DNA of 45,407 nucleotides, from the IMG/VR virus record IMGVR_UViG_3300011114_000627, positions 1 through 45,407 of that record; one strand, 5' to 3'. Of the stretch, positions 2,286 through 30,182 are shown piece after piece. Below the pieces are notes generated by a model. The model made no database searches. It saw only the letters and a list, made by a program, of their open reading frames with translations, and had not been told where the DNA came from. The position numbers were made by a program, and so were the translations under genes. Numbering within the stretch: position 1 is the stretch's first letter; each line of letters opens with the position of its first letter. The stretch comes from a virus.

Positions 2286-2314
2286 TTACTACGTGTAGTA
2301 AATCGGAGTTTACT
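2286..2314 (+). promoter_or_regulatory. Two competing short hairpins after the zinc-ribbon gene
   Basis: Directly after the stop codon, TTACTAC (2286-2292) and GTAGTAA (2295-2301) form a perfect 7-bp inverted repeat with a 2-base centre. AGTAAA (2297-2302) can instead pair with TTTACT (2309-2314), leaving loop TCGGAG. The two pairings share bases and exclude each other. In DNA it could be a palindromic operator; in RNA a small switch before the next gene. There is no T-run, so it is not a classical terminator. Confidence 0.45.
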
Positions 2315-18567: not shown

Positions 18568-18753
18568 ATGTGTTTAATCAAAAACTGCAATCGCGAGGCG
18601 GCACGTCGCGGATTGTGCAATGCGTGCTATCAGACGCTGTACAAGTCGGTACGATCCGGGGCCACGACATGGGCAAAGCTGGAAAAACGTGGGCTTGCAT
18701 TGGCGACTCGTGTTAGCCCTGCGTCGGTGGCACTCAATCGCGAATCCAAGTAA
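18568..18753 (+). CDS. Small zinc-binding protein, hypothetical
   Basis: A 61-residue basic protein starting at ATG 18568 with GAGAGG 6 bases upstream. Cysteines C2, C7, C17 and C20 form a C-x4-C-x9-C-x2-C arrangement (NPMCLIKNC in the longer frame, then LCNACY), a plausible single zinc site. Tyr- and Arg-rich helix after the last Cys could bind nucleic acid. First gene of the early cluster; a terminator-like hairpin follows its stop. Confidence 0.6.
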   Translation: MCLIKNCNREAARRGLCNACYQTLYKSVRSGATTWAKLEKRGLALATRVSPASVALNRESK

Positions 18754-18770: not shown

Positions 18771-18790
18771 CGGGCACGGATGCCCGTTTT
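18771..18790 (+). terminator. Hairpin with CGGA loop and T-run (terminator and/or CsrA site)
   Basis: CGGGCA (18771-18776) pairs perfectly with TGCCCG (18781-18786), loop CGGA, followed by TTTT: a compact intrinsic terminator for the preceding gene. The loop plus closing pair read ACGGAT, matching the A-N-GGA motif that CsrA binds in hairpin loops. A second GGA lies in the weak ribosome binding region of the next gene (18807-18809), about 29 bases away, the kind of spacing seen in dual-site CsrA repression. Confidence 0.65.
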
Positions 18791-18815: not shown

Positions 18816-19310
18816 ATGCCCAACACAACAAAAACAATCGGCTCGCAAACGTGGCGGTACGACGAGAACAACAACCGCATAACGATCCATGATTGGCGTG
18901 ACGAACCCGCGTGCGATGCGATCTTAGCGACCCTTGAGGGCTGCTCGGACTGCTCGGACTGCTCGGGCTGCTCGGACTTAGAAAACGCCACGCCAGTTGC
19001 CGAGATCAATAACCTGATGCAAATCCCAGTCATCAACAACATCCACAAGGAGTTGCTCGACGCAGTCACGTCCGAAGGATGTCACCTGAACATGGGCAGT
19101 TGGCACACATGCGAAACGACGCACTGCCGCGCTGGTTGGATTGTGACGCTGGCCGGTGAACCAGGGCGAGCATTGGAGGCGAAAACGTCAACGCTGTTTG
19201 CGGCACAGCAGATTTACAAGAAAAGCGGCTACCCGATTTCGCCGTGCCGATTCTTCGATTCAGATGAAGCGGCGATGGTGGATATGCAACGACTCGCGGC
19301 GGCGGAATAG
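18816..19310 (+). CDS. Hypothetical protein with CSDC repeats
   Basis: A 164-residue protein. Residues 43-54 are a Cys-Ser-Asp repeat (CSDCSDCSGCSD) made by four 9-base units. The C-terminal part holds GSWHTCETTHCRAGWIV and a helical QQIYKKSGYP segment, a pattern I recall from uncharacterised phage proteins. The repeated Cys could bind metal. The ribosome binding site is poor (GCGGA), which fits translational control. Unknown function. Confidence 0.6.
   Translation: MPNTTKTIGSQTWRYDENNNRITIHDWRDEPACDAILATLEGCSDCSDCSGCSDLENATPVAEINNLMQIPVINNIHKELLDAVTSEGCHLNMGSWHTCETTHCRAGWIVTLAGEPGRALEAKTSTLFAAQQIYKKSGYPISPCRFFDSDEAAMVDMQRLAAAE
18942..18977 (+). repeat. Four tandem 9-bp repeats in a coding region
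   Basis: Unit TGCTCGGAC occurs at 18942, 18951, 18960 (one change) and 18969. It encodes the CSD/CSG repeats and could vary in copy number by slippage without breaking the frame. Confidence 0.8.
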
Positions 19311-19663: not shown

Positions 19664-19693
19664 CCCCGCACGGAACGCGGACGCATGATGCGT

Positions 19694-19713
19694 GGCCACG
19701 GATGGCCGGTTTT
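19694..19713 (+). terminator. Second hairpin with CGGA loop and T-run
   Basis: GGCCA (19694-19698) pairs with TGGCC (19703-19707), loop CGGA, followed by GG and TTTT. It shares the 8-mer CACGGATG with the hairpin at 18771. Probable terminator for the preceding gene; the loop again reads ACGGAT as in CsrA targets. Confidence 0.5.
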
Positions 19714-20469: not shown

Positions 20470-20487
20470 CCAAGGAAGGTGACGAAC

Positions 20488-20751
20488 ATGAACGGCAATT
20501 TGGCAATCACACGCAAGGCAGGCGAATCATTCGTGATCGAAGTCGGCCAAGAAACAATCGAGGTCGAAGTGGTTCGCATCGGTCCGAATTCGGCACGGCT
20601 GCGAGTCAGCGCACCGAAGCACATGAACATCCGACGGGGTGAACTGCCACCGATTGAAATGGGTGTTCTCGGCAGTCACATCGGCGACCCGGAAGCGTTG
20701 TCAAAGGCGGCACTGGCAGTGAAGGACGAACAGCGGAACAAGGCGAACTAA
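20488..20751 (+). CDS. csrA: CsrA-family translational regulator
   Basis: An 87-residue protein with the CsrA core at residues 4-53: LAITRKAGESFVIE, then VRIGPNSARLRVSAPKH and NIRRGE, matching the LTRKxGE, RLGIxAPk and vHReE blocks. CsrA dimers bind GGA in mRNA hairpin loops, often over ribosome binding sites. The chain is longer than the usual 55-70 residues; the extra C-terminus (PPIEMGVLGSHIG...) is charged. ATG 20488 is preferred (AAGGAAGG 8 bases upstream); a GTG at 20479 is possible. Likely to regulate phage messages, host messages, or both. Confidence 0.88.
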   Translation: MNGNLAITRKAGESFVIEVGQETIEVEVVRIGPNSARLRVSAPKHMNIRRGELPPIEMGVLGSHIGDPEALSKAALAVKDEQRNKAN

Positions 20752-20761
20752 GGATCGAATC

Positions 20762-20992
20762 ATGGCAGGCAATGCAGGCCCGAAACGCTCGCCAATCAGT
20801 GACGCCATTCGCGACGAGCTAATGCGATACCCGGATACGTTCACGAACATTTGCGAGCGGGCACAAGTGGCACGCGGCGGAACTCTGCGTAAATGGCTGC
20901 GGGGTGAGGCGCAGTTGATGCCGACGACTTTGACAAAACTGGCGGCGGAATTGGGGTATGAGATTCGACTAGTGCCGAGGGGTCAATCGTGA
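20762..20992 (+). CDS. Small helix-turn-helix protein
   Basis: A 76-residue basic protein. FTNICERAQVARGGTLRKWL followed by LTKLAAELGYEIRL is a Cro/XRE-like helix-turn-helix with a recognition helix rich in Arg/Gly; IRLVPRG resembles the end of many phage repressor-like domains. AAGGA precedes the ATG. It may be an early repressor or activator, but no C1-type partner or operator array is seen nearby. Its stop overlaps the next gene's GTG. Confidence 0.65.
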   Translation: MAGNAGPKRSPISDAIRDELMRYPDTFTNICERAQVARGGTLRKWLRGEAQLMPTTLTKLAAELGYEIRLVPRGQS

Positions 20993-28126: not shown

Positions 28127-28470
28127 TTGGCTCGGCTGGTGCGGCATGGCGCGAACAGAATGGCGAGGCGCGGCGTGTCGGGGTATGGCTGGTGAGGAGC
28201 GGATTGGATAGGACAGGCAGCACTTGGCGCGGCTGGCAAGACTCGGATTGGAAAGGACAGCCTACAACTGGAACGGCAAGGCTGGCGGTGATTGGCACGG
28301 ATGCTGGTTTGGCGAGGACAGGTTAGGAAAGGATCGGCGGGGCAACGCGCGGCATGGCTGGATTGGCAGGGACTGGCCGGGCGAGGAGATGCCGGGAATG
28401 GCGTGGACAGGCGGGATCGGCCAGGCGAGGACTGGATCGGCAAGGCAACGCGCGGCGCGGCTGGAACGGA
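28127..28470 (+). repeat. Degenerate pentanucleotide (NNNGG) array, about 68 units
   Basis: From the base after the previous stop to about 20 bases before the next start, G or GG recurs every 5 bases with only occasional 4-base steps or skipped positions, for example at 28201, 28206, 28211, 28216 and at 28311, 28316, 28321, 28326, 28331, 28336, 28341. The three other bases vary. About 20 of the units read GGA. A reading frame runs through part of it by chance of low stop content, but a 5-base period does not fit codons. Its G-rich strand is the message strand. Confidence 0.85.
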
Positions 28471-29901: not shown

Positions 29902-30179
29902 ATTTGTTATGTCGGCATCGAATATAGACTTGTGCGAATTCCGTAAATAAGTGGGATAACTGGCGCGAAACTGGGGTTGATTGTGGAAGCGACCTTTGGA
30001 CAATCGATTGCGTCGGAAGTGATGAGCCGACAAGATAAACACGCCTTCCAAGAAGCGGAACCGGAGTTCCGTGCGTCGTTTATCCGCACGGTTTCACCAG
30101 CGACTCATCATCGCCCCGCTTTTTGGAAGGCGTTTTCGTTTTACAGGGGAAGCGAAAACGTCAGAACGGAGTCGTTCTG
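29902..30179 (+). promoter_or_regulatory. Non-coding leader upstream of the replication gene
   Basis: A 278-base gap without a credible gene. The first 90 bases are relatively AT-rich and could hold a promoter, though I find no clear pair of boxes. The last 140 bases are densely base-paired (next entry). Position just before the initiator gene also allows an origin-related function. Confidence 0.6.
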
Positions 30180-30182
30180 ATG
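30042..30182 (+). promoter_or_regulatory. Structured 5' leader of the replication gene
   Basis: P1: 30042-30058 pairs with 30116-30132 over 17 bases (one G-U). Inside, P2: CCGTGCG (30069-30075) with CGCACGG (30085-30091); an alternative hairpin CGGAAC/GTTCCG (30056-30061 with 30066-30071, loop CGGA) excludes parts of P1 and P2. P3: CGTTTTCG (30131-30138) with CGAAAACG (30153-30160), loop with a GGGGA. P4 abuts it: TCAGAACG (30161-30168) with CGTTCTGA (30173-30180), loop GAGT. The ribosome binding GGAG is in P4's tip and the A of the AUG (30180) is its last paired base, so P4 should block initiation unless opened or bound. Confidence 0.65.

What the first reader, a model, noticed from the sequence alone, without database searches (positions are those of the whole stretch)
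20488..20751. Phage-encoded CsrA with matching GGA-loop hairpins in phage leaders
The CsrA core is clear. Intergenic hairpins with CGGA in or at the loop occur at 2297-2314, 18771-18786, 19694-19707, 30056-30071 and 30161-30180; three read A-C-GGA, the CsrA consensus. Two lie at or near ribosome binding regions (before 18816 and at the replication start). This suggests a self-contained post-transcriptional circuit in which CsrA times the early and replication genes.
Basis: partly seen in the sequence, partly recalled or inferred. Interest (0 to 1): 0.75.

Follow-up and report, generated by a model that had tools for sequence, protein, structure and literature searches.

The report
Phage CsrA with matching operon hairpins
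A virus of Planctomycetes bacteria carries its own copy of the bacterial RNA-binding regulator CsrA, and small RNA hairpins of the kind CsrA binds recur in front of the same group of genes in related viruses, so the virus may use it to control its own early genes; binding has not been tested.

Summary
The 87-aa gene at 20488-20751 is a true CsrA (PF02599; key RNA-binding residues kept; all clear PDB fold matches are CsrA/RsmA). The window is a virus record whose relatives include Planctomycetes prophages. All five GGA hairpins exist and sense-strand GGA-loop hairpins exceed shuffles, but only two (18771-18786, 19693-19708) match the CANGGANG core of the CsrA/Rsm consensus with an open GGA. The hairpin at 30159-30182 holds the SD and start codon of the replication initiator, with the first G of GGA paired. 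30056-30071 is swallowed by an 18-bp stem, and 2297-2314 is not in the best fold. Relatives gave an independent test: two divergent csrA operons carry a CANGGANG hairpin at the matching place, with different stems and no U-tract, so they are not simply terminators. In csrA-bearing viral contigs such hairpins cluster near csrA, and csrA ribosome-binding sites are enriched for ANGGA. Against a universal, closed circuit: csrA-less relatives also have such hairpins, eight Proteobacteria csrA phages lack them near csrA, and the hosts encode 8-13 CsrAs. Best reading: a phage csrA operon whose own leaders and csrA RBS are CsrA targets. The replication-timing part is speculative.

The parts
20488..20751 (+). 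csrA, 87 aa; CsrA/RsmA core (residues 5-53) plus a ~30-aa C-terminal tail
   Evidence: PF02599 E 1.3e-11, 44.8 bits over cut-off 27; L-x-I-T-R-K and I-R-R-G-E keep the RNA-binding positions; fold model core pLDDT ~96, PDB matches CsrA/RsmA
20471..20478 (+). CAAGGAAG at the csrA ribosome-binding site (CANGGANG): candidate autoregulatory site
   Evidence: P(unpaired GGA) 0.60-0.83
18771..18786 (+). hairpin CGGGC-ACGGAU-GCCCG in the leader after g18568, 30 nt before ATG 18816; followed by UUUUGCUUU
   Evidence: also called terminator-like
19693..19708 (+). hairpin UGGCC-ACGGAU-GGCCG in the leader before ATG 19753; followed by GUUUUAU
   Evidence: GGA unpaired P 0.95-0.98; terminator-like
30159..30182 (+). 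10-bp hairpin holding the SD GGAG in or at the loop and AUG 30180 of the replication initiator in the stem; ACGGAG but first G paired
30041..30133 (+).
   Evidence: (-48.1 kcal/mol, z -6.9)
30056..30071 (+). CGGAAC-CGGA-GUUCCG, present but not formed in the best fold
2297..2314 (+). AGUAAA-UCGGAG-UUUACU, present; not in the best fold; lies in the structural-gene region
18568..18753 (+). g18568, 61-aa small protein with C-x4-C...C-x2-C cysteines; anchor gene of the csrA operon in relatives
   Evidence: 80% identical in L048 and L111, 41% in L112
19343..19663 (+). g19343, operon gene (phrog_1123), 59% identical in L048 and L111
19753..20019 (+). operon gene, 55% identical in L111, same place upstream of csrA
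20762..20992 (+). weak HTH-like gene directly after csrA; 69% identical and same place in L111

Best explanation
A tailed phage of Planctomycetes carries csrA inside an early operon (g18568 - small genes - csrA - HTH gene) next to the methylase, helicase, exonuclease and replication genes. The CsrA dimer most likely binds the ACGGAU/AUGGAU/ACGGAC hairpins in the untranslated leaders of that same operon, and the ANGGA at its own ribosome-binding site, and represses (or, by refolding the leader, adjusts) translation of the operon. It would thus work as a negative feedback that limits CsrA and its operon partners, while also being free to act on host mRNAs. Shown here: the protein family, the operon synteny, the recurrence of CANGGANG hairpins at the same place in divergent relatives with changed stems, and enrichment of ANGGA at phage csrA ribosome-binding sites. 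Inferred: binding, repression, timing, and whether phage or host CsrA is the main ligand.
For: CsrA identity. Two CANGGANG hairpins in the 1.06 kb of non-coding DNA around the csrA operon against 0.013 expected, 0 antisense. Replication in the orthologous operons L111 (nearly identical to L048 there, so counted once) and L112: GGUC-AUGGAU-GACC and GGCC-ACGGAC-GGCC, p 0.008 and 0.017. A further contig, L011, has CCCGC-AAGGAU-GCGGG about 40 nt before csrA. Clustering near csrA: 10 within 3 kb vs 2 elsewhere, Fisher 9e-5, 7e-4 without the window. csrA RBS with ANGGA in 13 of 18 phage csrA genes vs 27% of phage genes (p 7e-5), or vs 42% of genes with a GGA-type RBS (p 0.01). Host intergenic DNA shows no sense bias: GGA loops 6 vs UCC loops 5 of 105 hairpins, and 1 sense vs 1 antisense CANGGANG hairpin in 38 kb. 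Literature: SELEX optimum RUACARGGAUGU in a hexaloop on a short stem (PMC7652899); mobile RsmQ binds ACGGA at hairpin tops (PMC9928087).
Against: No binding data. csrA-less relatives have similar hairpins (8 in 35.7 kb, half SD-like), so possession of csrA does not by itself predict them. In the eight published proteobacterial csrA phages examined none lie near csrA (0 in 5.8 kb). In the window the two best hairpins are followed by U-rich runs, as terminators would be. The IR1 hairpin competes with a fold that pairs its 5' arm with the start-codon region. The motif and distance cut-offs were set during the analysis, although the motif itself comes from the literature.
Confidence: 0.5

Rival explanations
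1. The hairpins are intrinsic transcription terminators after g18568 and g19343 whose loops merely read CGGA; csrA acts elsewhere.
For: 18771-18786 and 19693-19708 are followed by UUUUGCUUU and GUUUUAU and were called terminator-like by a simple scan, though that scan found no excess over shuffles.
Against: The homologous hairpins in L048/L111 (AUUCUUUC) and L112 (GGCAGACAG) lack a U-tract while the CANGGANG core is kept. Host DNA shows no such loops: none of 7 sense terminator-like hairpins in 400 kb has GGA in the loop.
Confidence: 0.17
2. The hairpins are targets of the host's own CsrA paralogues (sensing host state, or titrating host CsrA as decoys), and the phage CsrA is an independent gene for host take-over, as with plasmid RsmQ.
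For: Thalassoglobus neptunius has 13 csrA genes and another Planctomycetales genome 8. csrA-less relatives also carry CANGGANG hairpins. RsmQ binds host RNAs and shifts host behaviour (PMC9928087).
Against: The hairpins cluster around csrA in csrA-bearing contigs and sit in the csrA operon itself, which favours a csrA-linked role; only one or two sites per genome is few for a decoy.
Confidence: 0.25
3. Chance plus purine-rich ribosome-binding sites: GGA in loops is a by-product of SD sequences and of coding-strand purine bias.
For: CANGGANG is 30:5 on the coding strand, yet codon shuffling predicts 19 of the 26 in genes; several hits elsewhere are SD-type GGAGG; hairpins in general are about twofold enriched.
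Against: 18771, 19693 and the L111/L112 hairpins do not overlap an SD; shuffles of the same segments give 0.008-0.017 per operon.
Confidence: 0.1

Closest known systems
CsrA/RsmA family (PF02599), incl. E. coli CsrA autoregulation at its own leader
   Same: Same domain and RNA-binding positions; ANGGA at the csrA ribosome-binding site; CANGGAUG hairpins like SELEX and RsmE sites (PMC7652899)
   Different: Encoded by a phage of Planctomycetes, ~32% identical to E. coli CsrA, short N-terminal extension and a C-terminal tail; RNA binding untested; no CsrB-like RNA found by Rfam search
csrA genes of published phages (P. aeruginosa F116, phi297 and YMC11/07/P54; Vibrio; Burkholderia Bcep22-like JC1)
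   Same: Phage-borne csrA, often among early or recombination genes in the Pseudomonas and Vibrio phages seen here; 30 of 2,517 phage genomes in a 2020 survey (PMC7366521)
   Different: In the eight checked no CANGGANG hairpins lie near csrA; JC1 csrA sits between portal and capsid genes (PMC9144972)
Plasmid RsmQ (pQBR103)
   Same: Mobile-element CsrA homologue that binds GGA/ACGGA at hairpin tops (PMC9928087)
   Different: RsmQ is known for acting on host RNAs; here the candidate targets lie in the phage's own csrA operon

Membership tests
CsrA/RsmA (PF02599) | Sequence match over the curated cut-off, spanning the five-strand core | tested here: met
   44.8 bits vs cut-off 27, residues 5-53 to profile 2-47 of 53
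CsrA/RsmA (PF02599) | RNA-binding residues of strand 1 (L4, T5, R6, R7 of E. coli) and strand 5 (V42, R44) | tested here: met
   I7, T8, R9, K10 and I48, R50 by alignment; R9 and R50 invariant in 17 phage CsrAs
CsrA/RsmA (PF02599) | CsrA fold | tested here: met
   Model core pLDDT ~96; Foldseek ranks 1-13 are all CsrA/RsmA, probability 0.99-1.00, TM 0.55-0.75 by target, although E is only 0.008-0.1 and the monomer was modelled alone
CsrA/RsmA (PF02599) | Domain-swapped dimer that binds GGA RNA | not testable with these tools
   needs protein and RNA
CsrA target hairpin (RsmE-type A/UCANGGANGU/A; SELEX RUACARGGAUGU) | CANGGANG core with GGA unpaired in a loop on a short stem, for 18771 and 19693 | tested here: met
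   18771 and 19693 in the window, L048/L111, L112, L011; GGA open in IR2, L111 and L011, less so in IR1 and L112 when longer context is folded
CsrA target hairpin (RsmE-type A/UCANGGANGU/A; SELEX RUACARGGAUGU) | the same, for 2297, 30056 and 30161 | tested here: not met
   2297 UCGGAG not in best fold; 30056 out-competed; 30161 first G paired
Intrinsic terminator | GC hairpin followed directly by a U-tract | tested here: inconclusive
   met by 18771 and 19693, not by the homologous hairpins in L111 and L112
CsrB/RsmZ-like sponge RNA | Rfam match or many GGA hairpin loops in one RNA | tested here: not met
   no Rfam hit; the GG-rich array 28127-28470 has 22 GGA but only 5 ANGGA and a 5-nt period

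The most novel reading that the evidence does not exclude
A lineage of Planctomycetes phages runs a phage-owned post-transcriptional circuit: phage CsrA binds hairpins in the leaders of its own early operon, its own ribosome-binding site and (in the window and G007) a hairpin enclosing the start codon of the replication initiator, so that CsrA level sets the switch to replication in a host that itself has many CsrA paralogues.
Probability: 0.25. Interest if true: 0.68.

Novelty: new variant of a known kind. Interest (0 to 1): 0.5.

Why it matters
csrA genes occur on about 1% of phage genomes, but what they do for the phage is unknown; the 2020 survey calls for loss-of-function tests (PMC7366521). 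Here concrete phage-borne RNA targets are named and partly replicated in relatives, so that the question 'does phage CsrA act on the phage or on the host?' becomes a direct gel-shift and reporter experiment. It would also extend Csr control to Planctomycetes, where the two genomes examined carry 8 and 13 csrA copies.

Tried and rejected
(1) Single-protein searches for relatives with CsrA, terminase and DnaB gave none or one distant locus; alignments of CsrA, of the helicase and of g18568 worked. (2) CANGGANG strand asymmetry (30:5) as evidence of CsrA sites: rejected, codon shuffling explains most of it. (3) GGA-rich array 28127-28470 as a CsrA sponge: rejected as main reading, because GG recurs every 5 nt irrespective of A, with 32 GGC and 5 ANGGA. 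(4) Genome-wide comparison of csrA-bearing and csrA-less phages: no difference in hairpin rate; only position relative to csrA differs. (5) Generalisation to all csrA phages: not seen in eight published ones. (6) Conservation of the replication-start hairpin: no comparable hairpin in three relatives (L018, L053, L057); in the fourth, L008/G007, GGCC-AAGGAU-GGCC spans the start codon of the homologous gene, which could be coincidence.

Full report
What was checked. The window is a 45,407-base virus record of a tailed phage: terminase, portal, protease-capsid fusion and tape measure genes, then a stretch of small genes with csrA, then methylase, SNF2-like helicase, exonuclease, replication initiator and DnaB. 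All genes called read on the + strand. Its nearest relatives by the helicase lie in viral contigs and in Planctomycetes genomes (Thalassoglobus neptunius and a Planctomycetales bacterium), so the host is most likely a planctomycete (inference).

CsrA. 20488-20751 encodes an 87-aa protein over the Pfam cut-off, with the strand-1 and strand-5 RNA-binding positions kept (L-x-I-T-R-K, I-R-R-G-E). A model from 17 phage CsrAs is confident over the core (pLDDT ~96) and matches CsrA/RsmA structures first (modest E-values because the monomer of a swapped dimer was searched). The call is firm; binding was not tested.

Hairpins and chance. All five hairpins exist. Sense-strand hairpins with GGA in the loop number 6 against 1.15 in shuffles, with ANGGA 3 against 0.31, and none on the other strand. 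Stem-loops as such are also in excess (9 vs 4). Two of the five are poor candidates: 30056-30071 is displaced by an 18-bp stem (z -6.9), and 2297-2314 is not in its best local fold. The hairpin at 30159-30182 is strong and holds the SD and the start codon of the replication initiator, but the first G of GGA is paired. The best candidates are 18771-18786 and 19693-19708, both C-A-C-G-G-A-U-G on perfect stems.

Independent test in relatives. A scan with g18568, the gene just upstream of the first hairpin, brought in L111 and L112. L111 is syntenic with the window through g18568, g19343, g19753, csrA and the HTH gene; L112 shares g18568 (41%) and csrA. Each carries one CANGGANG hairpin in non-coding DNA after the g18568 homologue and upstream of csrA: GGUC-AUGGAU-GACC in L111 (identical in L048, counted once) and GGCC-ACGGAC-GGCC in L112. 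Shuffle probabilities are 0.008 and 0.017, jointly 0 of 5000. Stem letters and the N positions change while CANGGANG is kept, and neither is followed by a U-tract, so a pure terminator reading does not fit. They were found by motif search, so the stem changes are not an unbiased covariation test.

Position relative to csrA. Across 17 csrA-bearing records, CANGGANG hairpins in co-directional intergenic DNA number 10 within 3 kb of csrA (14.7 kb) and 2 elsewhere (38.8 kb), Fisher 9e-5, or 7e-4 without the window; none is antisense. Several are at the csrA ribosome-binding site itself. Among 18 phage csrA genes 13 have ANGGA there, against 27% of 370 phage genes (p 7e-5) or 42% of genes with a GGA-type site (p 0.01). 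This fits autoregulation as known for E. coli CsrA (PMC7652899).

Limits. Over whole genomes csrA-bearing and csrA-less phages have the same rate of such hairpins (0.21 and 0.22 per kb), so the association is with position near csrA, not with possession of csrA. Eight published csrA phages of Vibrio, Pseudomonas and Providencia have none near csrA. Hosts encode 8 to 13 CsrAs, which could bind the same RNAs. The host genome itself has almost no such hairpins (1 sense in 38 kb), so they are not generic planctomycete terminators.

Known state. csrA in phages is known (30 of 2,517 genomes, PMC7366521; Bcep22-like JC1, PMC9144972), and plasmid RsmQ acts on host RNAs and binds ACGGA at hairpin tops (PMC9928087). 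In the papers searched I found no report of a phage csrA with targets in its own operon; the library is incomplete. Verdict: ordinary protein family, unusual and partly replicated set of candidate targets; the replication-timing claim remains speculation.

Noticed in passing
window 28127-28470: Non-coding array of ~340 nt in which GG recurs every 5 nt (G autocorrelation 0.48 at lag 5; highest GGA density of the genome, 22 in 366 nt); no match in phages; the ORF called across it probably starts at ATG 28491. Function unknown.
   Followed up: partly
window 29971-30182: Strongly structured leader of the replication initiator (z -4.7 over 299 nt; 18-bp stem 30041-30133), possibly an origin or RNA switch: 30023-30032 can also pair with about 30101-30110, crossing the main stem.
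   Followed up: partly
L091-L103 (Thalassoglobus neptunius, G035): 13 csrA homologues in one genome; at least three on separate contigs lie in 0.9-2.6 kb blocks of 92-96% identity, as if copied with a mobile element.
   Followed up: partly
L008 12952-12973 (G007): GGCC-AAGGAU-GGCC hairpin enclosing the start codon of the replication initiator homologue in another csrA-bearing phage.
   Followed up: partly
L043 13090-13230 (G009): Structured non-coding stretch about 1.1 kb downstream of csrA with three CANGGANG sites; a candidate sponge or leader RNA.
   Followed up: partly
window 18936-18986; L113 10940-11032: Small genes with Cys-Ser-Asp/Gly repeats (CSDCSDCSGCSD) shared by the window and a relative.
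   Followed up: no
L042, L039, L047 (near record ends or csrA): Hexanucleotide arrays (ACGGAK, ATGGCK) that read as Gly-Tyr/Asp repeat proteins in three csrA-bearing phage contigs.
   Followed up: no
L070: A contig binned as Candidatus Paceibacterota carries helicase, methylase and DnaB relatives of this phage; phage contig or mis-binning.
   Followed up: no
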